Part shown: piece by piece, positions 27,448-61,254 of the stretch
How positions within the stretch are numbered: position 1 is the first letter of the stretch
Layout: each line of letters opens with the position of its first letter
Source of the DNA: Oceanispirochaeta crateris
Lineage (GTDB): Bacteria; Spirochaetota; Spirochaetia; DSM-2461
Assembly: GCF_008329965.1 (NCBI RefSeq)
Contig: NZ_CP036150.1
Location: 2,956,439 to 3,020,438, forward strand
Length of the DNA stretch: 64,000 nt
Direction of reading: 5' to 3'
Position numbers and translations under genes: made by a program
Notes under the pieces: model-generated
The model's database searches: none
What the model saw: the letters and a program-made list of their open reading frames with translations, nothing else
Told to the model about the DNA's origin: nothing

Positions 27448-27457
27448 AGTTGCTGTT

Positions 27458-28690
27458 TTATTCCGGGTATACTGGATCTGCTCTTTCTGTAAGGGAGGGA
27501 TGTTGTCCCAATTTGGGGATTTTCTGAACGACCTTATAACTCTGCCAGAAAGATAACCACTCATCATTCAATGGATTCACTTCAATGTTTTTATCCTTCG
27601 CTAGAAGTTTGGCCTCCGAATAGGCTATTTCATATCTTTTTAAAAGCCTCAGATTCTCTTCCTGCCTTATCCTGTGAGCATCTGTCCAAAGCCCCAGATC
27701 CTCTAAATACCGAATCAACCCCGGATGAACTGGAACAAATGTTGTCTTAAGTGCTTCCATCAAATGATGAAGGCTCATATACCTGTTTGTTCCGTAATTG
27801 TCTTCATAATCTTCAAAATGTTCATCAAGCCACTGAGCCAAATGATAGATAAGTTCTTCATCCGTATTTTCTGAAGTAATATTGAAGATATACCCCACGC
27901 TACCCCAATGCTGCCGGGCCTCATCAATACCGGATTCAATCAAACCAAATGAGTATAAAGGACTAATCGATTGCCAGCGTTTGGCTCCAGCAGGATCTTG
28001 GTCTGAATTCAAATCCAGAAGGCGAAGACCATGGGGAGCGGCAGCGAGTTCATTCATGAGTGGAGATGCAGGAAAGCCAAAGGCAACATCGGCTCTTCCT
28101 TCTGAGACAGCTCTCATTGCGCTTTCAAAACTACCGGCATTTATCCATTCAATAGAAGATTCATCCACTTGGATCCAGGCTAATAGGGAACGATATGGGT
28201 TTAATGTAGATTCCCTCATATTCCACACTGAAAACTTCGTGCCAACTGTGATGTCATAGATTGTTTGTATTTCAGAATCACTGCGAACAAAAAAACCCGA
28301 GTTAGCCAAATCATGTATCCAAACAATTCTGGGTTGAAATCCCCCATTTTCGTCGGTGGCCTGATCTTCAAGGCCTTCGATGATGTGACTCAAAATACTC
28401 TTAGATCCTGAGCTTAACAACATTTTACCCGATTTTACGAGTCCCATGGATATCCCATGATTTGTTTCCGGAATGACACGAACTGCCATACCTGTATCAG
28501 CTTCCAAAACCGATGCCCAACTCACATACTTTGCTAAGCCACTCCGCCCGGGTGCTGCAATGTGCATTTGCTCCGGCCAGTTCCATTGACCTGATTCTTT
28601 AGGTGCAGATTTACTGCAGCCCATTAACACTATCAGGAAATAAAAGCAAAGCGAGAAGTGCCCAACTGCTCTGTGGAAGTTCTGTCTCAT
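27458..28690 (-). CDS. TAXI-family TRAP solute-binding lipoprotein
   Basis: 410 residues. A lipobox ends the signal peptide (FYFLIVLMGCSKS), so it is probably lipid-anchored. The TAXI family core is visible as MHIAAPGRSGLAKYVSWASV near the N-terminus, then RVIPETNHGISMGLVKSGKM and ADVAFGFPASPLMNEL. The C-terminus (VPVHPGLIRYLEDLG) resembles the FHPGAIRYYKE end of TAXI proteins. It binds an organic anion outside the membrane for the fused permease directly downstream. No metabolic gene adjoins, so the ligand is unknown. Confidence 0.9.
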   Translation of the reverse strand: MRQNFHRAVGHFSLCFYFLIVLMGCSKSAPKESGQWNWPEQMHIAAPGRSGLAKYVSWASVLEADTGMAVRVIPETNHGISMGLVKSGKMLLSSGSKSILSHIIEGLEDQATDENGGFQPRIVWIHDLANSGFFVRSDSEIQTIYDITVGTKFSVWNMRESTLNPYRSLLAWIQVDESSIEWINAGSFESAMRAVSEGRADVAFGFPASPLMNELAAAPHGLRLLDLNSDQDPAGAKRWQSISPLYSFGLIESGIDEARQHWGSVGYIFNITSENTDEELIYHLAQWLDEHFEDYEDNYGTNRYMSLHHLMEALKTTFVPVHPGLIRYLEDLGLWTDAHRIRQEENLRLLKRYEIAYSEAKLLAKDKNIEVNPLNDEWLSFWQSYKVVQKIPKLGQHPSLTERADPVYPE

Positions 28691-45282: not shown

Positions 45283-46041
45283 TTATTTGTTGGCTAACCA
45301 AATTATGGCTTGTTGCCATAATTTTTCATACCCTTCCCATTCAGCAAAAGCCTTTGGACACCAGTGAGGACCGATATCACTCATCCAGGCCATTGTTCGG
45401 CCCTTGCCATACTCCATTGTCGCAATGAGAGGGTGACCATAATTTGACTCAACTAAGAGCTGTGCTTCCTTTTTAAGAAGGGCTTCCTGATAACCAAGTA
45501 AATACGGCCAATCTCCTCCAACTCCCTTCAGAATTTGGTGATGGGGGTCTTTTATGATACTTATCACGCCTTCAGGAACTTCAACCCGATCATCATAAGG
45601 ATACACATCAACAGGGAGAATTGTTTCAATTGGAGTATTATGGTATTTTGCCGCTCCTTGAAAACCTGCAAAAGAGAGATAACCTCCGGCCATACAAAAC
45701 CCGCCACCATTTTTGACCCATTCACTTATCAGTTTTAAACGATTTGGAGAAACCTCCCCCTCTACAAAAACCTTTCTGTTCAGGAGTAGAGAGTTCGAAC
45801 CAATATCACTCAACATTATGACATCATACTCTTGCAAACCCTCTAATGAATCAGGGAATTCTTCTGTCGCCTGATGAGAAGGAAGATGAGTCAGATTGAT
45901 ATTTTCATTTTTTTCTAGCGCTTTTTTAAGATAATAGTGACCTGTTTCATAATTAGATGTAGAAAAATGGTCAAACCCTTTAATGTGGGAGCTATGTGAA
46001 ATCCACGACTCTCCAACCAATAATACATTATTCTTTTTCAT
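45283..46041 (-). CDS. Putative glutamine amidotransferase-like (class I GATase fold) protein
   Basis: 252 residues from the ATG at 46039-46041 with GGTGA upstream; in-frame starts at 46091 or 46116 would lengthen it. It matches the cytoplasmic GATase1-like family (DUF1355-type): VLLVGESWISHSSHIKGFD at the N-terminus, YDVIMLSDIGSNSLLL, then GGGFCMAGGYLSFAG, where the Cys sits in the nucleophile-elbow position, and a C-terminal GKGRTMAWMSDIGPHW. Members often sit in sugar-transport operons in spirochaetes and Firmicutes; the reaction is not established. It is the last gene of the ABC operon from 50824. Confidence 0.75.
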   Translation of the reverse strand: MKKNNVLLVGESWISHSSHIKGFDHFSTSNYETGHYYLKKALEKNENINLTHLPSHQATEEFPDSLEGLQEYDVIMLSDIGSNSLLLNRKVFVEGEVSPNRLKLISEWVKNGGGFCMAGGYLSFAGFQGAAKYHNTPIETILPVDVYPYDDRVEVPEGVISIIKDPHHQILKGVGGDWPYLLGYQEALLKKEAQLLVESNYGHPLIATMEYGKGRTMAWMSDIGPHWCPKAFAEWEGYEKLWQQAIIWLANK

Positions 46042-46161
46042 TTCTTCACCATGCTTGTTTTGTTTGACGAATCCATTTGAATTGTCTACCATTCCGCTTC
46101 CTGCTGGAACCATCAATTCAAACTTTTTTGCACAAGTCCTTCTAAGAAGGATGCCCCATAT

Positions 46162-47175
46162 TTATTCTTTTACTACAGGCTTCTTATTTACACTGAAGTA
46201 ATTTAAAACCATGACAAGAAGCAGGACACTACCCCAGATCAGAGAAATATAATAACTGCTTATATGGGGAAATCGGTTTATACCAGTTTCGAGCATTCTT
46301 AATAAAATGATAGCCAGAACAACACCACTAATCTTGCCTTTTCCTCCCAATGGGTCCACACCTCCCAAGACAACAATAAGAACGGTTTGCAGGGTATACA
46401 CTGAACCATAATCAGCACGAGCAGAATTATAATTTGCCAGCATAATCATTCCGCCTAAAGCAGCCGTTATACCAGATAACATATAAGTTTTTATCAGAAG
46501 TTTTGTTATTTTTAATCCACTAAACCTTGCTGCCGTAGGACTTGTTCCCAGCATATATAATTTTGTTCCAAAAACAGTTTTGGAGAGAAGGAACCATATA
46601 AAAACTGCCATCACTATAAAAAATATCAGCTGAACAGGAATAACTCCTCCCAATTTATTGTTTATGGTCTGTGAATATGCTCTGGAGAATTTGCTAACCG
46701 CATTTCCATTTGTGAGAACAACACTTATACCAGTAAACAATGCCCCGGATCCCATAGTTGCAAGAATGGGGGGAATATTCAGTTTGCTTACGAGAACACC
46801 ATTAAAAATACCGGCAATTGCACCTATCATTATTGCTAAAATAAACACTAATAATATTGAGAAAGCCGGCAATGTTCCGCCTTCACCTGTTAAAGACAAA
46901 AGTATAAAAGCCACAATTATAGAGGTCATGTTGGCGATCCCAACAACTGATAAATCAATTCCACCAGTCAACATACAAAGCATGACGCCTAAAGCCATTA
47001 ATCCAAATTCTGGAAATTGCGATGCCATCGTCTGAAAATTTAGTACAGTATAAAACTTCCCGAATCGGGTTATGGCTATAAAAATCATCCAAAGGGCAAT
47101 TAGAAAAACCAACCTTGTAATATGAGGATCATTTATTGACATGAATTTTATCTTTTTATTATTCAATAAATTCAT
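46162..47175 (-). CDS. Ribose/AI-2-type ABC permease (RbsC/LsrD-like)
   Basis: 337 residues, 8-10 hydrophobic segments, BPD_transp_2 family. Signatures: GLMALGVMLCMLTGGIDLSV (~60), GIFNGVLVSKLNIPPILATM, then TVLIVVLGGVDPLGGKGKI. Its ATG overlaps the stop of the second permease (ATGA). With 47172-48212 it forms a heterodimeric channel, as in Lsr and Rha transporters. Length is typical. Confidence 0.93.
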   Translation of the reverse strand: MNLLNNKKIKFMSINDPHITRLVFLIALWMIFIAITRFGKFYTVLNFQTMASQFPEFGLMALGVMLCMLTGGIDLSVVGIANMTSIIVAFILLSLTGEGGTLPAFSILLVFILAIMIGAIAGIFNGVLVSKLNIPPILATMGSGALFTGISVVLTNGNAVSKFSRAYSQTINNKLGGVIPVQLIFFIVMAVFIWFLLSKTVFGTKLYMLGTSPTAARFSGLKITKLLIKTYMLSGITAALGGMIMLANYNSARADYGSVYTLQTVLIVVLGGVDPLGGKGKISGVVLAIILLRMLETGINRFPHISSYYISLIWGSVLLLVMVLNYFSVNKKPVVKE

Positions 47176-48212
47176 ACTGCATTCCTTTTAGTAAATTTTT
47201 TATTACCAATGCCATTCATATTTGTTGATTGATAAATGCTGACACTCGTACCAATAATAATTAATGAACCGATAAAAATATTTTTGAAGGTAGTTGGTAC
47301 ACCAATAAGGATCAAAGAATTTTCGACAACTACGATAAGAAGGGTACCAAGAATAGCTCCAAATAATGTTCCCTTACCACCGGTTAATAAAGTTCCTCCA
47401 AGAACGATTCCTGCAATAATATTCAACTCCATTCCTAACATATTTGTGGGGTGGAATTGTTGCATCATGCTTGCACGGAAGATGCCGGCAACACTAACAA
47501 TCATACCCACAAGGATATACATAATGAATTTTGTTCTTTTAACTCTCACACCCGCTCTAATTGCGCTGGTTTCACTTCCACCAATGCAATAGATTCCACG
47601 TCCAAACATAGTGTAGCGGAGAATAAAGGATGTGAGCGCCAGAACAAGCAGAAAGAATAGAAAAGCAAAAGGCATTCGACTGGTTAGTCCCGAAACTGAA
47701 TTTGTTGCAATAAATAGAGATTTCTTACCAAATTCAACCATACCAGCAGGAATGGTTGTAAGCTGTTTCGAATTTAAAGCCCCCTGCATGATTCCCTTAA
47801 AAACACTGGCTGTACCCAGAGTAACGATTAGAGCTGGTAAATTAAAGAATGCTATGAACAAACCATTGAAAGCTCCAAGTATAGCTCCAATAAAAAGGGC
47901 AAGCAAAATTGCTGCCCAAATACTTCCGTTATAGTTTATGACCAATAACAACTTAGTCGTAGCATAAGCACTAAGGGATGCTAGAGCGGGAAAAGAGACA
48001 TCAATACCTCCAGAGATCAGTACTAGAAAGGCTCCAATTGCAAAAAGCCCTGGTACAATCATGGCAGAACTGATATCGACAAGATTATTTGAAGAAAAGA
48101 ATTGACCGGATCTAATCTCAATTAATAAACATAAACCTATAAGCACTATAAATACATATGTTTCATTTCGTCTTGATAATCGTTTTATTATTGTTGGCAA
48201 TGATGGTTGCAC
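47172..48212 (-). CDS. Ribose/AI-2-type ABC permease (RbsC/LsrC-like)
   Basis: 346 residues from a GTG with AGGAG 6 bases upstream. BPD_transp_2 signatures are LFAIGAFLVLISGGIDVSFP (~55), GAFNGLFIAFFNLPALIVTL and IIAGIVLGGTLLTGGKGTLF. It is the partner of 46162-47175 and lies 13 bases after the ATPase gene. Both permeases keep the family Gly-rich GGIDxS loop. A polytopic inner-membrane protein importing a pentose, 6-deoxyhexose or similar sugar. Confidence 0.93.
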   Translation of the reverse strand: MQPSLPTIIKRLSRRNETYVFIVLIGLCLLIEIRSGQFFSSNNLVDISSAMIVPGLFAIGAFLVLISGGIDVSFPALASLSAYATTKLLLVINYNGSIWAAILLALFIGAILGAFNGLFIAFFNLPALIVTLGTASVFKGIMQGALNSKQLTTIPAGMVEFGKKSLFIATNSVSGLTSRMPFAFLFFLLVLALTSFILRYTMFGRGIYCIGGSETSAIRAGVRVKRTKFIMYILVGMIVSVAGIFRASMMQQFHPTNMLGMELNIIAGIVLGGTLLTGGKGTLFGAILGTLLIVVVENSLILIGVPTTFKNIFIGSLIIIGTSVSIYQSTNMNGIGNKKFTKRNAV

Positions 48213-48224
48213 TGCATACTCCTT

Positions 48225-49709
48225 TTACATCATATAAGAAAGAATTGTTTTTTCATCAGTAGTATTAGGATCTAAATTGGCTGCGATTTCTCCTGATTTC
48301 ATGACAAGTATTCGTGAACAATTTTCCAATACTTCCGGCAGATCATCTGATATAATAATGACACCAAGACCCTTTGCAGCAAGGTCATGCAATATTTCAT
48401 GAATATCATGTTTAGAGCCTATATCAACACCAACAGTAGGCCCGTTGAGTATAATGACATCGAGATTACATGCTAACCATTTTGCTAGCACAATTCTTTG
48501 TTGATTCCCGCCAGAAAGTGTTTGGCAAGCATTACTTGGATCTGGAGTATCAATTGAGAGTTCCTTCACCCACTTATCTATCTCATCTTTCTTTTTATTG
48601 CTGTCAATAATACCAGCTTTAGAAGTAAGCTTATCAATTTTAGATATAACTATATTGTCTGAAATGCTTTGGGAAAGGAAAAGCCCTTCACTAAGCCGAT
48701 CTTCAGGAACGTAGCCAATTTTATGTTCTATTGCTGTTTGAATATTATTAATTTCTACCGGTTTTCCCTTAACATATATTTCTCCGGAATCCAGGGGTTT
48801 TGCCCCAAAAATGGATAATGCAAGATCAGTTCTTCCTGAATCAAGAAGCCCTGTTATACCCAAGATCTCTCCAGCTTTTAAAGTAAATGATATATTTTTA
48901 AAATGATTTTCCAGATATAGATTTTTCGCTTCAAATATAGGTTTTTCACTAAGATTCTCTGGAATGAAGTGTTTTTCTTCAAATTCACGTCCTGTCATAT
49001 AAAAACTGAACTTTTTAGAATCTAAATCTTTAGTTTCACCTGATGCGACGACAGATCCATTTCTTAAGATCGTAAAGAATTCAGAGATTTCAAAAACCTC
49101 ATTCAGTTTATGAGACACAAAAAGAATAGCAATACCCTGTTCTTTTAGCTTTAAAATGATATTAAAAAGTTGTTTCACCTCTAAGCGAGTCAGCGCAGTA
49201 GTGGGTTCATCCATAATGATAAGCTTGGTATTGAACATTAATGCCCTGCTGATTGCTATCATTTGTTTCTCTGCAACGGTAAGTGTACTGACATAAGCAT
49301 CTAGATCTATTGAGAAATTAATTTTAGCAAGAGACTCCTCTGCTATTTTACGCATCCTTTTCCAGTTAACAAAACGATGGCGATCAGCAAGTTCACTATT
49401 CAGGGCCAGATTTTCCATTACCGTCAGATTAGGAAAGACAGAAAAGTCTTGATAAATAACCTGTATACCGTTTGCTATGGCTTCAATAGGTGAAAATTTC
49501 CCGTATTTTTTTCCATTAATTTCCAGGTGACCTTTTGTGGGAGAATATACCCCTGATATAATTTTTATCAGTGTAGATTTTCCACTCCCATTCTCTCCAG
49601 CTAAACAATGGATTTCTCCAGGATTCAGTGAAAGAGAGACACCCTTAAGTGCCTGAACCCCTACAAACGATTTGTGGATATCGACGGTTTTAAGTAATCC
49701 ATCCGCCAT
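48225..49709 (-). CDS. Sugar ABC transporter ATP-binding protein, double-cassette (RbsA/MglA-like)
   Basis: 494 residues from the ATG at 49707-49709, which has GGGAGG directly upstream; a further ATG at 49721 lies inside that site and is less likely. First cassette: Walker A GENGSGKSTLIK (~40), signature LTVAEKQMIAIS, Walker B LIIMDEPTTAL. Second cassette: Walker A-like GLLDSGRTDLAL (degenerate), signature LSGGNQQRIVLAKWL, Walker B-like VIILNGPTVGVD, where the catalytic Glu is replaced (NGPT), so only one ATP site is fully competent. This asymmetry is usual in this family. It powers the two permeases downstream. Confidence 0.95.
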   Translation of the reverse strand: MADGLLKTVDIHKSFVGVQALKGVSLSLNPGEIHCLAGENGSGKSTLIKIISGVYSPTKGHLEINGKKYGKFSPIEAIANGIQVIYQDFSVFPNLTVMENLALNSELADRHRFVNWKRMRKIAEESLAKINFSIDLDAYVSTLTVAEKQMIAISRALMFNTKLIIMDEPTTALTRLEVKQLFNIILKLKEQGIAILFVSHKLNEVFEISEFFTILRNGSVVASGETKDLDSKKFSFYMTGREFEEKHFIPENLSEKPIFEAKNLYLENHFKNISFTLKAGEILGITGLLDSGRTDLALSIFGAKPLDSGEIYVKGKPVEINNIQTAIEHKIGYVPEDRLSEGLFLSQSISDNIVISKIDKLTSKAGIIDSNKKKDEIDKWVKELSIDTPDPSNACQTLSGGNQQRIVLAKWLACNLDVIILNGPTVGVDIGSKHDIHEILHDLAAKGLGVIIISDDLPEVLENCSRILVMKSGEIAANLDPNTTDEKTILSYMM

Positions 49710-49760
49710 ATTTCCTCCCATTTTTAGAAATATTTCAAAATATATAATTAAAAAAAATTT

Positions 49761-49789
49761 GCCCTGCTAAACTAAAAAGGTAGCAGGGC
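49761..49789 (-). terminator. Strong terminator-like hairpin after the sugar-binding protein gene
   Basis: GCCCTGCTA at 49761-49769 pairs with TAGCAGGGC at 49781-49789. On the minus strand it follows the binding-protein stop by about 20 bases and is followed by AAATTTTTTTT, a good U-tract. Partial read-through would still express the ATPase and permeases. Confidence 0.85.
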
Positions 49790-49810
49790 TAATACATTGT
49801 GTTGCGTTAT

Positions 49811-50824
49811 TTAGAATCCGAAACTAAGAACATTATCAGAATTGATAACGATCCAACCTTCTCCTTCAAGAACTTTAGAACTATTTTTCTTGAATTTGAG
49901 AGCTGTATATCCATCAACATCGAGGTCTACAGTTCCTGAGATTTCTTCTCCAGCAAGAACTTTCCTGGCTAATGAAATCATTGCTTTACCTGCAAGTGCT
50001 GGGTCCCAAAGAGTAAGGGATTTAACAACACCACTTTCGAGGAGGGCTTTATTATCAAGAGGCATACCTGTACCAGAGGTATAGGCTTTGTCAATCAACC
50101 CAAGTTCTTCAATGGCTCTCGCTACTCCAGGGGCATCATAACTGGAAGTTCCCATAACACCTTTTAGATCAGGATATTTTTTAAACAATTCCTTGGCAGT
50201 GTTATAAGCCACATCACCATTATCATTAGATTCTACCCTAGGTTTTTCATCAAGAAGCTGCATATTTGGATAGACTGCTTTTTGGTGTGCAACACCAGCA
50301 TCTGCCCATTCATTATGTGAACCATTGGTAAGGGAGGCAACCATAGTCGTGTACACTCCTTCTTCTCCCATGGCTTCTGCAAGATTATCCATAATGAAAG
50401 CGCCATATCCAGCATTACTAAAGGCTTCAATATCATAATCAATATTTTCTAAATCAGCACCTTCATGTGTAATAACAACAATACCCGCTTCACGTGCCTG
50501 GGCTAGAACAGGTTCTAGTGATTCTAGGTCAACAGGGACAACACAAAGAGCATCAACTTGTTGTGCAATCAAATCCTGAATCAACTGTGCCTGAAGGGTA
50601 GCATCAATTTCTGCAGTTCCCTTCTGATAAACATTAACTCCAGTTTCTTTAGCATACTCATCAACACCGACCTTCATTCTGACAAACCATGGATTAGAAG
50701 CATCCTTTGGAACGACTACTATTTCATAGTCTGTAGAGCTTTTTTCCTGCTGCCCACCGGCGAATAGAGGTGAAATTGACATTAAAACAATCGACAATAT
50801 AAGAATCTTTTTTTTCCAATTCAT
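49811..50824 (-). CDS. Periplasmic sugar-binding protein (RbsB/LsrB/RhaS-like, type-1 periplasmic binding fold)
   Basis: 337 residues. Signal peptide (ILILSIVLMSISPLFAGG) followed by QQEKSS, the A-x-G-Q spirochaetal pattern. Peripla_BP_4 features: IVVVPKDASNPWFVRMKVGV, QLIQDLIAQQVDALCVVPVD, VITHEGADLENIDYDIEAFS and GVMGTSSYDAPGVARAIEEL. The YDIEAF segment and the two-permease operon resemble RhaS/LsrB-type systems, so rhamnose, AI-2-like or a related sugar is plausible, but none can be fixed. AAAAGGAG precedes the ATG. Driven by the promoter at 50855-50882. Confidence 0.9.
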   Translation of the reverse strand: MNWKKKILILSIVLMSISPLFAGGQQEKSSTDYEIVVVPKDASNPWFVRMKVGVDEYAKETGVNVYQKGTAEIDATLQAQLIQDLIAQQVDALCVVPVDLESLEPVLAQAREAGIVVITHEGADLENIDYDIEAFSNAGYGAFIMDNLAEAMGEEGVYTTMVASLTNGSHNEWADAGVAHQKAVYPNMQLLDEKPRVESNDNGDVAYNTAKELFKKYPDLKGVMGTSSYDAPGVARAIEELGLIDKAYTSGTGMPLDNKALLESGVVKSLTLWDPALAGKAMISLARKVLAGEEISGTVDLDVDGYTALKFKKNSSKVLEGEGWIVINSDNVLSFGF

Positions 50825-52596: not shown

Positions 52597-53745
52597 ATGG
52601 CAAACAGAATGACCCTTAATGAAACATCCTATCATGGGAAAGGAGCAATTGAAGCAATTGTAGATGAAGTTAAATCCAGAGGTTGGTCCAAGGCCTTAAT
52701 CTGTACCGATCCTGATTTAATTAAATACGGTGTGACAAGCAAAATTACAGATCTTCTAGACAAAGCCACACTTCCCTATGAGCTTTTTTCTGATATAAAA
52801 CCCAATCCTCCAATTGAAAATGTATTAAGCGGTGTAGAGGCATACAAAAAAGCTGCTGCTGATTACATTATTGCCATTGGTGGAGGTTCCTCAATTGATA
52901 CGGCGAAAGCTGTGGGAATCATCATTACGAACCCTGAATTTGCAGATGTTAGAAGTCTGGAAGGAGTCGCTCCCACAAGGAATAAGTGTGCTCCCATTAT
53001 CGCAGTTCCAACCACTGCCGGTACAGCGGCTGAAGTCACTATTAACTATGTTATCACCGACCAGGAAAAGAAGCGAAAATTCGTATGCGTCGATACAAAT
53101 GACATTCCTGTCATCTCCTGTGTTGACCCAGATATGATGATGAGCATGCCTGCTTCGCTCTGTGCTTCAACCGGTATGGATGCTTTAACTCATGCCATTG
53201 AAGGCTATATTACAAAAGGCGCTTGGGAAATGACCGATATGATGCACCTTAAAGCCATTGAAATCATCGGTCGCTCTCTACGTGATTCTGTAAAAGGAGA
53301 TGCCGCAGCCAGAGAAGATATGGCACTAGGGCAGTATATTGCCGGAATGGGTTTCTCCAATGTCGGTCTAGGGATCGACCATTCCATGGCCCATACTCTC
53401 AGTGCATATTATGATACCCCCCATGGAGTAGCCTGTGCAATTTTCTTACCAACAGTCATGGAATATAATGCTGAATTTTCTGGAGAGAAATACAAATATA
53501 TTGCTCAGGCTATGGGTGTCAAAAATACTGAATCTATGAGTCAGGCTGAGTATAGAAAAGCGGCTATTGATGCCGTTAAATCGCTATCTAAGGATGTTGG
53601 TATACCACAAAACTTGAAAGATATAGTGAAGGAAGAAGACTTGGATTATCTATCTGAATCTTCCATAGCCGACGCCTGTGCTCCTGGGAATCCTAGAACA
53701 GTTAGTAAAGAAGATGTTATAAAACTCTTCAAATCATTGTTATAA
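52597..53745 (+). CDS. Iron-containing alcohol dehydrogenase (FucO/DhaT-like)
   Basis: 382 residues, normal length for group III dehydrogenases. NAD-binding IIAIGGGSSIDTAKAVGII (~90) and VPTTAGTAAEVTINYV (~145); metal ligands are in DALTHAIEGYIT (Asp/His), GLGIDHSMAHTLSAYYDTPH (two His). Reactions include lactaldehyde/propanediol, 1,3-propanediol or butanol interconversion with NAD(H). With a DhaS-like regulator upstream and a DctPQM transporter downstream it may process an imported alcohol, aldehyde or acid. AAGAGG lies ~11 bases before the ATG. Confidence 0.93.
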   Translation: MANRMTLNETSYHGKGAIEAIVDEVKSRGWSKALICTDPDLIKYGVTSKITDLLDKATLPYELFSDIKPNPPIENVLSGVEAYKKAAADYIIAIGGGSSIDTAKAVGIIITNPEFADVRSLEGVAPTRNKCAPIIAVPTTAGTAAEVTINYVITDQEKKRKFVCVDTNDIPVISCVDPDMMMSMPASLCASTGMDALTHAIEGYITKGAWEMTDMMHLKAIEIIGRSLRDSVKGDAAAREDMALGQYIAGMGFSNVGLGIDHSMAHTLSAYYDTPHGVACAIFLPTVMEYNAEFSGEKYKYIAQAMGVKNTESMSQAEYRKAAIDAVKSLSKDVGIPQNLKDIVKEEDLDYLSESSIADACAPGNPRTVSKEDVIKLFKSLL

Positions 53746-54079
53746 AAATAAAAATTACCGGGCAATTGTCTTTTGTGCCCGGTTTAGAAACCCTTCCCAA
53801 GGCATATTATAGAGACCCTTTCAATCAAGCACTCTGATTATCTTCCATCATACACACATTATTCAAAGCACAGCCTTTCCCACCCCTACTGATTCAAACC
53901 ATTTCTCCTTCCAAAGAGAAGAGAACGAGTATGACATCAAAAGTTTGTTCATAATTTTAAACTAAAAAATAGTATATTCAGTTTCTTTGGGGCATCACAG
54001 AGTATAGAGTTTAGTAAATTCGAATGCTTTTGCGTCTTCGTGAAAGTATAAATCAGTATTATTTTTCTAGGAGGAAAAA
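53746..54079. other. Intergenic stretch before the TRAP genes
   Basis: It contains a GC-rich stem at 53757-53764/53776-53783 (ACCGGGCA/TGCCCGGT, followed by TTTAG), likely the terminator of the dehydrogenase gene, and AT-rich DNA upstream of the DctP start that should hold its promoter (TATAAAT near 54048 is a -10 candidate). No gene seen. Confidence 0.5.
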
Positions 54080-55108
54080 ATGAGGAAATTACTTTTAAGG
54101 GCTCTGGTCGTAGTAACACTACTAACTCTAGCGGCCTGTAGTAATGACAAAAAGGAATCTGGCAAAGCTTCTGCTGCAGCTGAGCCAAAAGTCATTAAAA
54201 TCAGCACCAAGTTCGTCGACGATGAACAAACTGCTATTTCTTTGAAAAAGGTTGTCAAAGAGGTCAATGAGAAAAGCGGTGGATCCCTTGAACTTCAACT
54301 ATTCACAAGCGGCGTTTTACCAATTGGAAAAGACGGTATGGAGCAAATCGTAGCCGGTTCTGACTGGATACTTGTTGATGGTGTCAACTTTCTTGGAGAT
54401 TATGTTCCAGACTATAATGCAATTACCGGTCCCTTCCTTTACAGCTCTTTTGATGAGTATTTTGCAATGACACAGACCGATCTTGTAAAAGAAATGAATC
54501 AGAAAATCGAAGAGGAAAACGGTATTAAAGTTCTCTCTCTTGACTGGGTCTTTGGTTTCAGAAGTATGATGACAAACAAGCCAATTAAGACACCTGCAGA
54601 TATGGAAGGATTGAATATTCGTGTCCCCACCAGTCAGCTTTATACTTACACCATTGAAGCCATGGGTGGAAATCCTGTAGCAATGCCCTACCCCGATACT
54701 TATGCCGCAATACAGCAGGGTGTTATCGATGGAGTAGAGGGTTCTATCATGACTTATTACGGAACACAGCAATATGAAAATGTTAAAGAATACTCATTGA
54801 CTAATCATCTTCTGGGTGTCTCAGCTGTTTCCATCTCAACTAAATTGTGGGATAAATTGACAGAAACAGAAAAAACAATTCTCGTAGACGCTTTTGAAAT
54901 GGGAAGAGAAGACAACTTGAAAGAAACCCTGGCAGCAGAAGGTGAGTTTATTGACCTTCTCAAAGCAGAAGGTGTTGTCTTTAACGAAGTTGACAGCGAA
55001 GCATTCCTTAAAGCAGCTGCGCCTGTTTATACCAGGTTCCCACAATGGACTCCCGGTATTTATGAAAGGATTTTGACTGAGCTTGAAAAAATCAAAGCTG
55101 CTCAATAG
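54080..55108 (+). CDS. TRAP transporter solute-binding lipoprotein (DctP family)
   Basis: 342 residues with a lipobox (VVTLLTLAACSNDK) and a strong AGGAGG before the ATG. DctP signatures: IKISTKFVDDEQTAISLKKV, SGGSLELQLFTSGVLPIGKD, then MEGLNIRVPTSQLYTYTIEA with the conserved Arg of the carboxylate-binding site, and MPYPDTYAAIQQGVIDGVEG. It probably binds a carboxylate or sugar acid. It is the first gene of DctPQM; a 13-bp hairpin separates it from DctQ. Confidence 0.94.
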   Translation: MRKLLLRALVVVTLLTLAACSNDKKESGKASAAAEPKVIKISTKFVDDEQTAISLKKVVKEVNEKSGGSLELQLFTSGVLPIGKDGMEQIVAGSDWILVDGVNFLGDYVPDYNAITGPFLYSSFDEYFAMTQTDLVKEMNQKIEEENGIKVLSLDWVFGFRSMMTNKPIKTPADMEGLNIRVPTSQLYTYTIEAMGGNPVAMPYPDTYAAIQQGVIDGVEGSIMTYYGTQQYENVKEYSLTNHLLGVSAVSISTKLWDKLTETEKTILVDAFEMGREDNLKETLAAEGEFIDLLKAEGVVFNEVDSEAFLKAAAPVYTRFPQWTPGIYERILTELEKIKAAQ

Positions 55109-55123
55109 AACTGTTATGTATTG

Positions 55124-55155
55124 AATAAGGTTTTCCTTTGGGGGAAAACCTTATT
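55124..55155 (+). terminator. Intercistronic hairpin between DctP and DctQ genes
   Basis: AATAAGGTTTTCC at 55124-55136 pairs with GGAAAACCTTATT at 55143-55155; 6-base loop; followed by TTATG, so the U-tract is poor. Likely a stabiliser or partial terminator giving more DctP than DctQM. Confidence 0.75.
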
Positions 55156-55180
55156 TTATGCTAATGGGAAAGGGTTTTAT

Positions 55181-55744
55181 ATGAAAAAAATTATTAGGAA
55201 TTTGGGCGTTCATTTTGAATTGTATATTGGCGCCGTCTTCTTATCTGTTACAACATTAATTGTCATAATGAATGTCTTCACCAGGTATTTTCTGCGCTTT
55301 ACATTTACATGGGCCGAAGAAATTGCAGTTGGGTGTTTTGTCTGGACCATCTTTCTAGGGCTTGCCAACGCATACAAAACAGGAGGCCTCATCGGTGTTG
55401 AACTTCTGACAAATCTGGTGCCTGAAAAAGGACGTCCGGTGATTGTGTTCATTACATCATTAATTGTTTCTACTATTTCAGGAACTATGTTTTTGTTCAG
55501 TTTTAAATACGTGATGGGCTCCACTAAAATTACAGCAGCTTTGGAATTATCTTACAAGTATATTTACAGTTCCATGGTTTTTTCTTTTGCTTTAATTACT
55601 TTATATTCCTTGTATTTTCTGGAACAGAGCTTCAGGAAAATGGTAACAGGTGCTGATATAAAATTTGTAGTAGAGGATAATCTGGAAAGTGACATTGTTG
55701 AGGAAGAGCAGACAACGATGAGTACAAATAAGGAGTCTGACTGA
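55181..55744 (+). CDS. TRAP transporter small permease (DctQ)
   Basis: 187 residues from the ATG at 55181 (AAAGGG upstream); a TTG at 55121 would place the start inside the hairpin and is rejected. Four hydrophobic segments in the DctQ layout: GAVFLSVTTLIVIMNVFTRY, FTWAEEIAVGCFVWTIFLG, then VIVFITSLIVSTISGTMFLF. The C-terminus is acidic (EDNLESDIVEEEQT). It stabilises DctM and presents the binding protein to it. Its stop overlaps the DctM start by one base. Confidence 0.92.
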   Translation: MKKIIRNLGVHFELYIGAVFLSVTTLIVIMNVFTRYFLRFTFTWAEEIAVGCFVWTIFLGLANAYKTGGLIGVELLTNLVPEKGRPVIVFITSLIVSTISGTMFLFSFKYVMGSTKITAALELSYKYIYSSMVFSFALITLYSLYFLEQSFRKMVTGADIKFVVEDNLESDIVEEEQTTMSTNKESD

Positions 55745-57033
55745 TGGAGGTATTAATTCCTGTAGGAGTATTATTTCTTCTGTTTTTTTTAAACGTTCCA
55801 ATAGCCTTTGCTTTAATGGGCTCATCTCTAACTTACTTTATCTTTTTTAACAACTCGATGCCTATGGAGATGATCATTCAACAGTTTGTCACAGCAGTTG
55901 AATCCTTCCCCTATCTGGCCGTACCCTTCTTTATCATGGTTGGTTCAGTAATGAATCATTCTGGAATCAGTAAGGCACTGATGGATTTTTCTGATGTTCT
56001 TGTCGGACATACAAAAGGCGGTTTGGCACAGGTAAATGTTCTGCTCAGTGCCTTGATGGGAGGGATCTCAGGTTCTGCAAATGCCGATGCGGCAATGCAA
56101 TCAAAAATTCTAGTCCCGGAAATGGAGAGAAAAGGGTTCTCTAGAGAGTTTTCTGGAGCAATTACAGCAGCCTCATCGGCTATAAGCCCGGTAATCCCAC
56201 CTGGAACAAATCTGATTCTTTATGCACTGATTGCCAATGTATCGGTAGGAAGTATGTTCCTTGCGGCATATATGCCTGGAATTCTAATGGCCATTGCATT
56301 GATGATCACAGTTCATATTATTTCAGTCAAAAGAAATTATCAGCCCAGTAGAAAACGGATGTCATCTCCAGCCGCGATTTTTAAGCAATTCTCAAAATCC
56401 GTATGGGCACTGTTTATTCCTTTTGCCATTATTATGGGAATGCGCTTTGGTATATTTACACCAACAGAAGCTGGAGGTATTGCCGTTGCCTTTGCAGTGG
56501 CCGTTGGTTTCTTTGTCTATAAAGAACTGACAGTGAAGCATATACCACTCATCCTAATGGATACAGTAAAGGGAACGGGAGCCGTTATGGCTATCATTGC
56601 CAGTGCCAAAGTATTTGGATACTATCTGACACTGGAGAGGATTCCCCAGATAATCACAGAATTCCTGATCAATATGACAGGCAGTCCTTTTGTACTGCTG
56701 CTTGTAATCAATGTCATGTTAATTTTTATTGGTATGTTCATCGAAGGTGGAGCCGCTCTGGTAATTCTCGCTCCTTTGCTTGTACCGGCTGTAAAATTAT
56801 TTGGTATTGATCCCGTGCATTTTGGCATTATCTTTATTGTAAACATAATGATCGGAGGCTTGACTCCTCCCTTTGGGTCAATGATGTTTACAGTTTGCTC
56901 TATCGTAAATATAAAACTGGAAGACTTTTTTAAAGAAGTCTGGCCCTTTATTATAGCTCTATTGTCTGTTTTGGTTCTTGTAACCTATTCAGAACCAGTC
57001 GCCTTGTTTACCTTGAGGCTCTTCGGAGGCTAA
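55744..57033 (+). CDS. TRAP transporter large permease (DctM)
   Basis: 429 residues, about 12 segments. Family signatures: PFFIMVGSVMNHSGISKALM, LMGGISGSANADAAMQSKIL, then ISPVIPPGTNLILYALIANV and IGGLTPPFGSMMFTVCSIVN. It catalyses ion-driven uptake of the DctP ligand. The short overlap with DctQ indicates coupling. A binding-protein/kinase/regulator cassette follows, 48 bases downstream, which may regulate this transporter. Confidence 0.95.
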   Translation: MEVLIPVGVLFLLFFLNVPIAFALMGSSLTYFIFFNNSMPMEMIIQQFVTAVESFPYLAVPFFIMVGSVMNHSGISKALMDFSDVLVGHTKGGLAQVNVLLSALMGGISGSANADAAMQSKILVPEMERKGFSREFSGAITAASSAISPVIPPGTNLILYALIANVSVGSMFLAAYMPGILMAIALMITVHIISVKRNYQPSRKRMSSPAAIFKQFSKSVWALFIPFAIIMGMRFGIFTPTEAGGIAVAFAVAVGFFVYKELTVKHIPLILMDTVKGTGAVMAIIASAKVFGYYLTLERIPQIITEFLINMTGSPFVLLLVINVMLIFIGMFIEGGAALVILAPLLVPAVKLFGIDPVHFGIIFIVNIMIGGLTPPFGSMMFTVCSIVNIKLEDFFKEVWPFIIALLSVLVLVTYSEPVALFTLRLFGG

Positions 57034-57081
57034 ATTTTTATTGCAAAGGAACTGATAGAGAATGGAGATTATTCCGGCACT

Positions 57082-58104
57082 ATGATAGTAAAAGCAAGAT
57101 TAAAAATTTTAATACTCTTCATCGTGCCCTTAATCATCATCATTCTGTATTTTTTAGTTAAGCTGCCAGGGTTTCTAATGGATACAGAATCTGAAAATCA
57201 AGTTTTAAAGATACATAGTCCTCTAAATGAAAGAATCATTATACCTATTATTAAAGAGTTTCAGGAGAGTACTGGTATTCTAACCGAATATACTTCTGCT
57301 GGAACTCTTGATCTTTTGCATTCTCTCGAAGACAAAGGTGATAAATATTTAATGGATCTCATGTGGGGTGGGAGCAAGGAATATCTGACGATTTATGAAG
57401 ATTTATTTGAACCCCTCTACTATGAATCCAGTACGGAATATACTCTCGGTTACAACCTGCTTCCTATTGTTTTGATATACAACCGCAAACTTGTATCAGA
57501 AGAAGAGGTTTCCCGCAGCTGGTCAGATATACTTCAGCCAAAATGGAAAGGTCGACTGGCCTTGGCTGATCCGGAGGGTTCTGGCTCAGCCTATATTGCC
57601 TTGTCTTTTCTTCTGGAACTGGGCATGGAAGAGGAATATAATTGGGATAATGCAGCAAAACTATATTATAATGTTGAAGGCAAAATGCTCTCAAAATCAT
57701 CAGAGGTTTACAATGGTGTGGCCGATGGTGATTTTGCCATTGGGATTACGATGGAAGAAGCTGCTATCAATCTAATTCACCAGGGCAAAGACATAGGAAT
57801 CGTTTATCTCAATGAAGGCACTCCAGTCATAAATGACTCCATAGCTCTTATGAAAGATGCCCGGCACAAGGAAGAAGCTAAGGCTTTTATTGAGTTTGTT
57901 CTAAGCAAGAAAGTTCAGACCTTCATGGTTGACCGGTTCTATTTAAGATCGGTGAGAAACGATGTCAGAGTTCCAAACGGCCTTTCATCTATGGATGAAC
58001 TGAATATATTCGATGCCTCTAACCTATCAACATTTGACAATCAGGAAATGATTCTTAATAAATGGCGCAATATTATCGCTGATTTCGATAAAATGGATTT
58101 ATAG
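57082..58104 (+). CDS. Membrane-anchored extracellular solute-binding protein (Fe/spermidine-type fold), sensory component
   Basis: 340 residues. One N-terminal segment (ILILFIVPLIIIILYFLVKL) works as an anchor or signal without lipobox. The rest is a type-2 binding fold of the SBP_bac_6/PotD kind: RIIIPIIKEFQESTGILTEY, DLMWGGSKEYLTIYED, WSDILQPKWKGRLALADPEG, then EAKAFIEFVLSKKVQTFMVD. No permease or ATPase adjoins. Instead its stop is one base from a sensor-kinase ATG, so it most likely binds ligand for the kinase, as in known SBP-kinase three-component systems. Ligand unknown. Confidence 0.85.
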   Translation: MIVKARLKILILFIVPLIIIILYFLVKLPGFLMDTESENQVLKIHSPLNERIIIPIIKEFQESTGILTEYTSAGTLDLLHSLEDKGDKYLMDLMWGGSKEYLTIYEDLFEPLYYESSTEYTLGYNLLPIVLIYNRKLVSEEEVSRSWSDILQPKWKGRLALADPEGSGSAYIALSFLLELGMEEEYNWDNAAKLYYNVEGKMLSKSSEVYNGVADGDFAIGITMEEAAINLIHQGKDIGIVYLNEGTPVINDSIALMKDARHKEEAKAFIEFVLSKKVQTFMVDRFYLRSVRNDVRVPNGLSSMDELNIFDASNLSTFDNQEMILNKWRNIIADFDKMDL

Positions 58105-58105
58105 G

Positions 58106-59878
58106 ATGGGCCAAATCCGAATTCCAATATTTCAGAAGCTCTACATTACGTACATTCTATGCAGCATTCTACCCTTAATTATAATGGGCGGTTTGATGTA
58201 TGGATTTTCATTGAATTTCATCAATAGAACTCTTAACGAGCAGACGATGAACAGCATCATATCTTTTCATGAAAAGATTCATGTTAGAGTATCGGCATAT
58301 GAAAATATTCTTCTGCAAATTCAAAATGGATTGAAGACTAGTGAGTCTCTGAACTCAGCCTCCAGATTAGAGACAGACAACAATGAAATCTATGAAATTA
58401 TGTATGATGCTCTTGAAGGTGAAGTAATAAAGCCTATTGTACACTTGACGAACTTAGACGGCAGTAGAGTTTTCTCAACATCCGACTTTCCAGAAAGCTA
58501 TAAGGCTGAATTGATGAACAAATGGGGGGTTTTCAGAGAAATCGAAGGTCAGACAAATGACCCAGTCATCTACCTGCAGGAAATGGATTATTCTCGTGAA
58601 GGAAAGACCATCATCAGTTTGGGAAGCAAACTCTATGATCAGGCAGGTTCGCCTACCGGTTACATTCTGGTGGAAATGTCCAGACAGGTCCTCTTTGAAG
58701 AAGCCAAAGTGTTTAATTCTGGCCTGTCTAATCATATGGTACTATTAGATGAAAACGGATATACGCTTTTTGATTCGATTAATAGTGAAATGGAAGGAAA
58801 ATTCCAGCAAGCCAAATATCTAGACCTGGAAAAAATTGGGAACCACTACCCCATAGATAGCCTGATAGGAAACAGTACATTTCTTAATCTTGAATACAGA
58901 GATAAGAAATTGAAAACGGTGACCAGAGTCAACGTTTCATCAAATATCTTCCATTCTTTTAACCGCATACTTACATTGATCATTGTTGGCGGAAGCCTCT
59001 TTAGTTTACTTGTGTCAATTATCCTTGCCAACGCACAAGCCAGATCAATATCCAGCCCCATTAAAGAGCTTATAAGCGTTATGGGTGAAGTAGAGAAAGG
59101 CGCTTTAGAAATACGAGCAAATTTAAGAAATCGGGATGAGATTGGCGAACTTGGAAAATATTTCAACCAGATGCTTGACCGGCTTAACATTTACATGAAT
59201 CAGGTCATTGAAAAACAAAAACAATTACGGACAGTGGAAATCAAAATGCTACAAGCCCAGATAAAACCTCATTTTATTTACAATACTCTGGATGTTATAA
59301 AATGGAGTGTAAAACTGGGTCATCAGCCAGAAGCAATCAGTGTTGTGACCAATCTAGCCCGACTACTTCGCTTTTCAATTGACAGCGCTGATGAATTCTT
59401 AACAATCCGCAATAATATTGAATTTATAAACAGCTATTTGACAATACAAAGAATCAAGTACAATAATAGTTTTGAAGTAATAACAGATATAGATGAAGCT
59501 CTGATGGATTATCGAATTCCAAGACTCATACTTCAACCATTTATTGAGAATTCCATAATACACGGATTTGGTAAAACAAATAAAAGCGATGGCATCATCA
59601 CAATTACCGGTCAGTTTAATAAATCCCGATCTTCTGACGGAAACAGTGAAAGCCAGTTTATTGAGTTTAGGATTTCAGATAACGGATTAGGAATGACAGA
59701 ACAGGAAATCCAAGAGCTGACATTTGAAAGACCAGAACACCATATTGGAATTTATAATGTAGACAGGCGAATAAAGATGTATTTTGGTGATGATTTTGGT
59801 GTAAGAATCAGCAGTCATTCTGGCGGAACCGAGGTGGTCATAACCATGCCGAAAACTATGACAGGAGAGATTATGTGA
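58106..59878 (+). CDS. Membrane sensor histidine kinase (YesM-like)
   Basis: 590 residues. TM1 ~12-34, extracytoplasmic region ~35-290 (Cache-like), TM2 ~290-310, HAMP (SSPIKELISVMGEVEKGALE), His box QAQIKPHFIYNTLDVIKWSV (~390), N box LQPFIENSIIHGFG, G1 ISDNGLGM intact. It overlaps the response regulator start by 4 bases (GTGA) and follows the binding-protein gene by one base. It phosphorylates the regulator at 59875-60675 in response to the binding protein or to its own ligand. Confidence 0.93.
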   Translation: MGQIRIPIFQKLYITYILCSILPLIIMGGLMYGFSLNFINRTLNEQTMNSIISFHEKIHVRVSAYENILLQIQNGLKTSESLNSASRLETDNNEIYEIMYDALEGEVIKPIVHLTNLDGSRVFSTSDFPESYKAELMNKWGVFREIEGQTNDPVIYLQEMDYSREGKTIISLGSKLYDQAGSPTGYILVEMSRQVLFEEAKVFNSGLSNHMVLLDENGYTLFDSINSEMEGKFQQAKYLDLEKIGNHYPIDSLIGNSTFLNLEYRDKKLKTVTRVNVSSNIFHSFNRILTLIIVGGSLFSLLVSIILANAQARSISSPIKELISVMGEVEKGALEIRANLRNRDEIGELGKYFNQMLDRLNIYMNQVIEKQKQLRTVEIKMLQAQIKPHFIYNTLDVIKWSVKLGHQPEAISVVTNLARLLRFSIDSADEFLTIRNNIEFINSYLTIQRIKYNNSFEVITDIDEALMDYRIPRLILQPFIENSIIHGFGKTNKSDGIITITGQFNKSRSSDGNSESQFIEFRISDNGLGMTEQEIQELTFERPEHHIGIYNVDRRIKMYFGDDFGVRISSHSGGTEVVITMPKTMTGEIM

Positions 59879-60675
59879 TTGATGTTGTAATCGTTGAAGA
59901 TGAATCCTACATCAGAAAAGGGATGGTGGTAACAACCCCCTGGGCAGAACTTGGCTGTCAGGTGATAGGTGAAGCCGGCGACGGATTGCAAGGTTATGAA
60001 CTGGTAAAAAAATTAAAACCGGATATTGTGATTACAGATGTCAATATGCCTATTTTAGATGGTATAGAAATGCTCAGGAAACTGGATGGAGTCTGCGATA
60101 CGGAATATATCATCATATCTGGATATAACGACTTTGCTTATGCCCAGCAAGCCATAAAATTAGGCGTCAGAGACTACCTACTTAAACCCATCGATGACGA
60201 TGACTTTTATGACACAATCAAAAGAGTCATTCTACAAATTGAAGAAAAGCGTAACATGACAAAACAACGGGATCAAAACCGGTTAATTCAGGAAGGAAAA
60301 GGAATTCTGGCAAAAGAAGCAGGCTTCGACGCACAGTATGACAGCAGACAAATATATGTTGTGAAAGCCAGGCAATGGATAGAAGCTCATTTCAGTGAGA
60401 ATATTAGCATTAAAGATGCAGCTCTGGAACTGAAAATTAGTGAAAGCTATTTGAGTAGGTTATTTAAGAACTATATGGGATATACATTTATTGAATATCT
60501 TACCGACTATAGAATCCGGGAGGCAATTGAGCTTTTAAAAGATCACCATATCAAGATTTATGAAGTTTCTGAGAAAGTTGGATATAATGATCCCAAATAC
60601 TTTGGAATCATATTCAAAAAGAAAATTGGTGTGTCTCCGATTACATTCAAGAATAGGTATATGTCTGAAGAATGA
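59875..60675 (+). CDS. Response regulator with REC and AraC HTH (YesN-like, short form)
   Basis: 266 residues from a GTG overlapping the kinase stop, with GGAGAG upstream. Receiver (~1-120): VEDESYIRKG, phospho-acceptor Asp in IVITDVNMPILDG (~54), Lys in RDYLLKPID. HTH (~160-265): ISIKDAALELKISESYLSRL and VSEKVGYNDPKYFGIIFKK, ending GVSPITFKNRY. It lacks the long middle region of the other regulator (5038-6627). It probably activates the dctPQM operon upstream. Confidence 0.94.
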   Translation: MIDVVIVEDESYIRKGMVVTTPWAELGCQVIGEAGDGLQGYELVKKLKPDIVITDVNMPILDGIEMLRKLDGVCDTEYIIISGYNDFAYAQQAIKLGVRDYLLKPIDDDDFYDTIKRVILQIEEKRNMTKQRDQNRLIQEGKGILAKEAGFDAQYDSRQIYVVKARQWIEAHFSENISIKDAALELKISESYLSRLFKNYMGYTFIEYLTDYRIREAIELLKDHHIKIYEVSEKVGYNDPKYFGIIFKKKIGVSPITFKNRYMSEE

Positions 60676-61089: not shown

Positions 61090-61104
61090 TGTTTTCAAAC
61101 ATGA

Positions 61105-61232
61105 TTCTTCGGGGCAGGGTGAGCTTGTTATTAGCAATTCCCTACCGGCGGTTAAAGCCCGCGAACCGGCTGAAAAGCTGGTTGAACTGGTGAGATTCCA
61201 GTGCCGACAGTATAGTCTGGACGAGAGAAGAG
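61105..61232 (+). ncRNA. FMN riboswitch (RFN element)
   Basis: The conserved RFN blocks are present in order: CTTCGGGGCAGGGTGA (61107-61122), CCCTACCGGCGG (~61140), AAAGCCCGCGAACCGG, then GGTGAGATTCCAGTGCCGAC (~61190-61209) and GACGAGAGAAGA (61220-61231). The P1 stem pairs TCTTC at 61106-61110 with GAAGA at 61227-61231. A terminator follows directly, so FMN binding should stop transcription of ribDEBA. Confidence 0.96.
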
Positions 61233-61254
61233 TAAGGTAAAGTGGATAACCATG

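What the first reader, a model, noticed from the sequence alone, without database searches (positions are those of the whole stretch)
57082..60675. Binding-protein/kinase/regulator three-component cassette beside a TRAP transporter
A Fe/spermidine-type binding protein with a membrane anchor and no permease is fused in operon (1-base gap, then GTGA overlap) to a YesM kinase and a short AraC response regulator, directly after dctPQM. The binding protein is probably a sensor, not a transporter part, and DctP has a different fold, so sensing and transport may use two separate proteins for one ligand.
Basis: partly seen in the sequence, partly recalled or inferred. Interest (0 to 1): 0.55.

Follow-up and report, generated by a model that had tools for sequence, protein, structure and literature searches.

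The report
Organophosphate sensor cassette for TRAP importer
A spirochaete carries, in one operon, a TRAP importer that probably takes up glycerol phosphate and a membrane-anchored binding protein, kinase and regulator that probably sense a similar compound and switch the importer on; sensors of this kind are known, but I found none described with a TRAP importer.

Summary
dctP-dctQ-dctM-SBP-HK-RR lie head to tail at 54080-60675, with the stated 1-base gap and GTGA overlap. The same six genes occur in one other Spirochaetaceae genome (SBP 75%, HK 72%, DctP 89% identical). "Fe/spermidine-type" is too loose a label: among solved structures the SBP's closest relatives are HptA, AfuA and VcA0625, which bind sugar phosphates. 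The DctP is 68% identical to FN1258, which binds glycerol phosphate. Of 27 related dctPQM loci, 18 carry a HAD-IIA phosphatase or a glycerophosphodiesterase; 81 control loci carry none. Both sides therefore point to an organophosphate. A 37-bp block upstream of dctP is conserved between the two genomes (35/37) and occurs once in each. The genome holds no orphan permease for the SBP. Best reading: a three-component sensor of the HptASR/PgtCBA kind that activates a TRAP importer instead of an MFS antiporter, with separate unrelated proteins for sensing and uptake. Relatives of the SBP-HK-RR trio sit beside AfuA-type ABC transporters, CUT1-type permeases and, here, TRAP. Ligand identity, SBP-HK contact and promoter control are inferred. 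This is a new variant of a known kind.

The parts
53947..53983 (+). 37-bp conserved block upstream of dctP, candidate binding site of the response regulator; TATAGA (54003-54008), a possible -10, lies 19 bp downstream
   Evidence: 35/37 identical to L039 2790-2826; best of 100 dinucleotide shuffles 24/37; one match with up to 3 mismatches in each of the two genomes; 10 or more mismatches in all 33 other loci scanned. Function inferred.
54080..55108 (+). dctP, TRAP substrate-binding protein of the glycerol-phosphate type
   Evidence: PF03480; 68% identical to FN1258/4PFB, Z 37.7; FN1258 binds glycerol phosphate (PMC11668362, passages)
55181..55744 (+). dctQ, small TRAP permease (longest ORF starts at TTG 55121; the in-frame ATG at 55181 is likelier)
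   Evidence: PF04290
55744..57033 (+). dctM, large TRAP permease
   Evidence: PF06808, TIGR00786 above cut-off
57082..58104 (+). membrane-anchored HptA/AfuA-family binding protein, proposed sensor
58106..59878 (+). YesM-type histidine kinase: two TM segments, extracytoplasmic domain (about 40-285, weak dCache), HAMP, His389
   Evidence: PF06580, PF00672, PF02518; TM and H-box
59875..60675 (+). short response regulator (REC + AraC HTH, 266 aa; phospho-acceptor Asp55)
   Evidence: PF00072, PF12833, PF00165

Best explanation
A dedicated three-component organophosphate sensor that controls a TRAP importer. The SBP, tethered by its N-terminal helix on the outer face of the inner membrane, binds a small phosphorylated compound (most likely sn-glycerol-3-phosphate or a close relative). 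It then changes its contact with the extracytoplasmic domain of the adjacent YesM kinase, as HptA does with HptS. The kinase phosphorylates the AraC-type regulator. The regulator binds the 37-bp block upstream of dctP and raises transcription of the whole dctPQM-SBP-HK-RR operon (positive feedback). DctPQM imports the compound. Sensing and uptake thus use two unrelated binding proteins. Shown here: gene order, families, conservation of the operon and of the block, the organophosphate signature of both binding-protein families and of related dctPQM neighbourhoods. Inferred: ligand, SBP-HK contact, phosphotransfer, DNA site and sign of regulation.
For: SBP: HptA is the top sequence hit (E 1e-23 alone, 1e-56 by profile); AfuA, VcA0625 and P5PA (all bind phosphorylated ligands) come next, ahead of iron binders at 1e-36. 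Foldseek ranks HptA first. The hydroxyls that contact phosphate in AfuA (Ser37, Thr150) align with Thr75 and Ser169. DctP: 68% to glycerol-phosphate binder FN1258; the two ligand arginines are invariant in 21 of 21 rows (Arg161, Arg181). Related dctPQM: HAD-IIA phosphatase in 10 and GDPD in 11 of 27 loci, 18 of 27 with either, against 0 of 81 control loci. Sensor side: SBP-ATPase-permease-inositol-monophosphatase-HK-RR operons in 4 loci of related spirochaetes. Control: operon organisation in two genera, plus the block unique to dctP. Precedents: HptASR-UhpT (PMC8774646, passages); PgtCBA-PgtP (PMC11077982, passages).
Against: No binding, expression or interaction data. The AfuA residues that hold the sugar ring (His205, Asp206, Glu229) are not conserved (Glu226, Ala227, Ile250), so the SBP is not a hexose-phosphate binder by that motif and its ligand is open. 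Ser/Thr at the phosphate positions is common in this SBP family, so it is weak evidence. VIA-align Z values for AfuA/HptA (30.7, 30.1) are tied with ferric binders (29.8). The kinase sensor domain gave no match to an HptS chain at E 0.1. The SBP sits on a long branch. Only two genomes carry the arrangement. No clear repeat inside the block was identified.
Confidence: 0.68

Rival explanations
1. The three-component system controls dctPQM but senses a different cue from the TRAP substrate, such as inorganic phosphate or a phosphodiester precursor, so the two binding proteins have different ligands.
For: Sugar-ring contacts of AfuA are not conserved; SBP relatives serve ABC operons with an inositol monophosphatase, so ligands vary within the family; the SBP branch is long.
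Against: Both families are of the organophosphate type and the genes share one operon; HptASR and PgtCBA sense the substrate of the transporter they control.
Confidence: 0.2
2. The SBP is a transport component: a second binding protein that feeds a distant ABC transporter or the TRAP membrane unit.
For: 70 of 86 examined family members lie within 6 kb of an AfuA-type ABC permease.
Against: No adjacent permease or ATPase. The genome's matches to an AfuA-type permease (6 at E <= 1e-5) lie in operons with their own partners or are CUT1-like; no orphan was seen. The SBP gene is joined to the kinase gene by one base and is membrane-anchored.
Confidence: 0.07
3. The SBP-HK-RR trio is a chance neighbour of dctPQM and regulates genes elsewhere.
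For: 25 of 27 related dctPQM loci lack the trio.
Against: 48-nt gap, no terminator-like site, six-gene order kept in two genera, and a conserved block found only upstream of dctP in both genomes.
Confidence: 0.05

Closest known systems
HptASR - UhpT (Staphylococcus aureus)
   Same: HptA-family SBP, kinase and regulator encoded together; no ABC permease for the SBP; adjacent organophosphate transporter of an unrelated family (PMC8774646, passages). HptA is the nearest solved relative of the SBP.
   Different: Transporter is UhpT, an antiporter, and the operons are separate; HptA is described as secreted, whereas this SBP has an uncleaved-looking TM anchor; ring contacts known from AfuA differ; kinase sensor domains not shown to be related.
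PgtCBA - PgtP (Salmonella enterica)
   Same: Sensor, kinase and regulator for a small organophosphate (3-phosphoglycerate) that switch on a non-ABC transporter (PMC11077982, passages).
   Different: Transporter PgtP (MFS, recalled). PgtC was not compared by sequence here.
CuaDSR / XylFII-LytS type two-SBP systems
   Same: One SBP for sensing, another for uptake of the same compound (PMC10384115, passages).
   Different: Both SBPs there belong to ABC-type families; here the uptake SBP is a TRAP DctP.
BctC-BctDE (Bordetella citrate TTT)
   Same: SBP-dependent signalling to a two-component system for a secondary SBP-dependent transporter (PMC5812351, passages).
   Different: One SBP does both jobs there; here a separate, unrelated SBP is the likely sensor.
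FN1258-type glycerol-phosphate TRAP
   Same: DctP 68% identical; both ligand arginines kept.
   Different: The Fusobacterium and Cetobacterium operons carry a HAD-IIA phosphatase (and glpQ in one) where this one carries SBP-HK-RR.

Membership tests
HptASR/PgtCBA-type three-component system | SBP of the HptA/AfuA family encoded with HK and RR | tested here: met
HptASR/PgtCBA-type three-component system | SBP has no ABC permease/ATPase of its own | tested here: met
   Locus. Genome: permease matches lie in operons with their own partners or are CUT1-like
HptASR/PgtCBA-type three-component system | Membrane kinase with extracytoplasmic domain plus AraC-type regulator | tested here: met
   PF06580 and HAMP, two TM regions; Response_reg and AraC HTH
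HptASR/PgtCBA-type three-component system | Kinase sensor domain homologous to that of HptS | tested here: inconclusive
   Profile of 15 HKs gave no HptS-labelled chain at E 0.1; only weak dCache-like sensor matches
HptASR/PgtCBA-type three-component system | Controls a nearby non-ABC organophosphate transporter | tested here: inconclusive
   Same operon and unique conserved block upstream of dctP; no expression data
HptASR/PgtCBA-type three-component system | Ligand-dependent SBP-HK contact | not testable with these tools
   needs protein work
AfuA-type hexose-phosphate binding protein | Sugar-ring contacts His205, Asp206, Glu229 | tested here: not met
   Align with Glu226, Ala227, Ile250 (alignment; residues from PMC4546632, passages)
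AfuA-type hexose-phosphate binding protein | Phosphate contacts Ser37, Thr150 | tested here: met
   Thr75 and Ser169; hydroxyl kept, but common in the family
Ferric-iron binding protein (FbpA) | Tyr-Tyr iron ligands in the C-terminal lobe (recalled) | tested here: not met
   No Tyr pair at the aligned stretch (Asp217-Gly221) against C. jejuni 1y4t; ligand positions recalled
Glycerol-phosphate TRAP (FN1258 type) | High identity to FN1258 with both ligand arginines | tested here: met
   68%, Z 37.7, rmsd 4.0, 306 aligned; Arg161 and Arg181 invariant
Glycerol-phosphate TRAP (FN1258 type) | Binds glycerol phosphate | not testable with these tools
   needs binding assay

The most novel reading that the evidence does not exclude
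The HptA-like SBP, YesM kinase and AraC regulator form a portable organophosphate-sensing module that has been combined with AfuA-type ABC, CUT1-type and TRAP importers in spirochaetes (and with an antiporter in S. aureus). In this lineage a former ABC binding protein lost its permease, gained or kept a membrane anchor and became the dedicated sensor of a TRAP importer, so that two unrelated binding proteins read one ligand for two purposes.
Probability: 0.45. Interest if true: 0.5.

Novelty: new variant of a known kind. Interest (0 to 1): 0.4.

Why it matters
It gives a concrete, testable case of an SBP-based sensor coupled to a TRAP importer, with a predicted ligand class, a predicted promoter site and clear knock-outs. 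It also shows that 'iron/spermidine' annotation hides organophosphate sensors, and that one sensing module sits beside transporters of different families, which helps predict substrates of unassigned transporters from their neighbours.

Tried and rejected
Iron/spermidine ligand: dropped, because HptA, AfuA, VcA0625 and P5PA all rank above iron binders by profile and no Tyr pair is present. FucO/rhamnose-type substrate for the TRAP: the lactaldehyde reductase at 52597-53745 is above cut-off, but about 330 bp with an 8-bp inverted repeat (53757-53783) separate it from dctP, and DctP points to glycerol phosphate; not pursued. Repeats in the conserved block: none convincing. Kinase sensor domain against HptS: no match. 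Named search in 84,980 species found only the BB7 record (two strict peptide patterns, so distant cassettes can be missed). Papers: searches listed none that describes an SBP-HK-RR system controlling a TRAP importer; listings only, except PMC5812351 (passages). Most subscription papers are not held, the PNAS HptA-HptS paper among them.

Results against the reading: 25 of 27 related dctPQM loci lack the trio; in the HK+RR tree two pairs without an HptA-like SBP in the same operon (L058, L081) fall among the SBP-linked ones; L170 has a TRAP operon of another type near an ABC-linked trio.
Full report
WHAT IS THERE. Six genes run head to tail on the + strand: dctP 54080-55108, dctQ to 55744 (likely start 55181), dctM 55744-57033, SBP 57082-58104, YesM-type kinase 58106-59878, AraC-type regulator 59875-60675. 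There is no terminator-like site between dctM and the SBP gene. The SBP has a single N-terminal hydrophobic helix and no cysteine, so it is membrane-anchored and cannot be a lipoprotein.

CONSERVATION. In 98 near relatives, 296 genomes drawn from the phylum and 394 from the class (overlapping samples), one genome besides the window's own, G020, has an ortholog (76%, E 1.5e-169). It carries the same six genes in the same order with the same GTGA overlap: SBP 75%, HK 72%, RR 78%, DctP 89% identical. The named-species scan found that same contig and no other. Upstream of dctP a 37-bp block matches 35/37 between the two genomes (window 53947-53983); 100 shuffles reached at most 24. It occurs once in each genome with up to 3 mismatches, and in the 33 other loci scanned the best match has 10 or more mismatches. 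This is what a dedicated operator would look like; binding is not shown.

SENSOR SIDE. By single-sequence search the best solved relative is HptA (E 1e-23). By a profile of 43 spirochaete SBPs the order is HptA 1e-56, AfuA 1e-54, VcA0625 5e-53, P5PA 1.5e-48, then iron binders from 1e-36. The AlphaFold model (pLDDT 90.2, pTM 0.81) has HptA and AfuA as its top Foldseek matches; VIA-align gives AfuA Z 30.7 (rmsd 3.1, 294 aligned) and HptA Z 30.1 (rmsd 3.2, 281 aligned), tied with ferric binders at 29.8. From the AfuA paper (PMC4546632, passages), the phosphate contacts Ser37 and Thr150 correspond to Thr75 and Ser169 here, whereas ring contacts His205, Asp206 and Glu229 correspond to Glu226, Ala227 and Ile250 (my reading of the alignment). 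So the phosphate half is kept and the hexose half is not.

WHERE THE FAMILY SITS. Of 86 distinct family members whose surroundings I examined, 70 have an AfuA-type ABC permease within 6 kb; 16 do not, and several of those lie at contig ends. I fetched surroundings for the top-scoring matches only: 40 regions after, all 16 matches (and earlier), and three plasmid records. Kinase-regulator pairs are frequent neighbours. Arrangements seen: SBP-ATPase-permease-HK-RR, with an inositol monophosphatase (PF00459) inside the operon in L170, L173, L174 and L176; SBP-HK-RR followed by a second SBP, permease and ATPase in L100-L103, L107, L108 and in Haliovirga; a lone SBP with HK-RR beside CUT1-like permeases in L099 and L104 (nearest NCBIfam models UgpA and UgpE, below cut-off) and, by BLAST label only, L177; and dctPQM-SBP-HK-RR in the window and L039. 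In the SBP tree (51 rows) the TRAP-linked pair falls in a 27-row clade (SH-aLRT 99) with these HK-linked SBPs and some plain ABC ones, on a long branch. The HK+RR tree (35 rows) is consistent, with two pairs (L058, L081) that break exclusivity. I read this as one sensing module that travels with different importers; the direction of change is inference.

TRANSPORT SIDE. DctP is 68% identical to FN1258 of Fusobacterium nucleatum (4PFB; Z 37.7, rmsd 4.0, 306 aligned). PMC11668362 (passages) states that FN1258 binds glycerol phosphate, held by two conserved arginines and a lysine; the arginines correspond to Arg161 and Arg181, invariant in 21 of 21 rows. In 392 phylum genomes 20 had a DctP match at E <= 1e-60 (23 matches). 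I fetched 20 of the 22 matches outside the window, and added 5 plasmid-collection loci, L039 and the window: 27 loci. Within about 3 kb, 10 carry a HAD-IIA phosphatase, 11 a glycerophosphodiesterase, 18 either one (families checked by profile in 7 of them). The same BLAST found neither gene in 81 other loci (59 + 13 + 9; about 1.19 Mb) from the SBP and kinase surveys. One Cetobacterium operon reads dctPQM-glpQ-MgtC-HAD-IIA and the Fusobacterium one dctPQM-HAD-IIA. The window's operon has SBP-HK-RR in that downstream place.

NO ORPHAN PERMEASE. A search of the window's genome with an AfuA-type permease gave 6 matches: two with their own SBP and ATPase (L078 and L180), two adjacent permeases with an ATPase (L181), and two weak matches that lie at CUT1 permeases (L081, L085).

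MECHANISM. Most likely the anchored SBP binds an organophosphate, alters its contact with the kinase, the kinase phosphorylates the regulator, and the regulator activates the operon from the block upstream of dctP. This follows HptASR-UhpT (PMC8774646, passages; PMC8399564, passage) and PgtCBA-PgtP (PMC11077982, passages). Separate sensing and uptake SBPs are known for cellobiose (CuaD and CuaA; PMC10384115, passages), and one SBP doing both for citrate in a TTT system (PMC5812351, passages). The steps from ligand to promoter are inference.

NOVELTY. The kind is known; the variant is the TRAP importer as output and the TM-anchored sensor SBP. Text searches listed no paper describing this combination; the library is open-licence only.

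Noticed in passing
window 61101-61236: FMN riboswitch (RF00050, 105.3 bits) followed by a strong terminator-like hairpin and then riboflavin genes (hairpin).
   Followed up: partly
L147 (G000:C1:481000-499000): A second dctPQM of the same DctP family in the window's own genome (DctP 41% identical), with a DeoR/GlpR-like regulator gene upstream instead of SBP-HK-RR.
   Followed up: partly
window 25549-28690: A long DctM-type permease (672 aa) overlapping an NMT1-like (TAXI-like, recalled) binding protein gene, another kind of TRAP system in the same genome.
   Followed up: no
L080, L082 (own genome): YesM kinase and AraC regulator operons with two RbsB-type SBP genes each beside a ribose-type ABC transporter; one SBP per operon may be a sensor, as in XylFII-LytS.
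   Followed up: no
L184 and L183 (NZ_CP143321.1): A Cetobacterium plasmid carries a stand-alone SBP-HK-RR cassette about 86 kb from a glycerol-phosphate-type dctPQM with HAD-IIA; control in trans is conceivable.
   Followed up: no
L182, L187 (NZ_CP084075.1): A 2.1-Mb Fusobacterium vincentii record filed as a plasmid looks like a whole chromosome.
   Followed up: no
L109, L110 (G156, G344): SBP match inside 649-662 aa open frames; fusion or frame artefact not resolved.
   Followed up: no
window 45283-50824: Rhamnose/AI-2-like sugar ABC operon ending in a GATase1-like protein, with an RpiB-like isomerase gene divergent to it.
   Followed up: no
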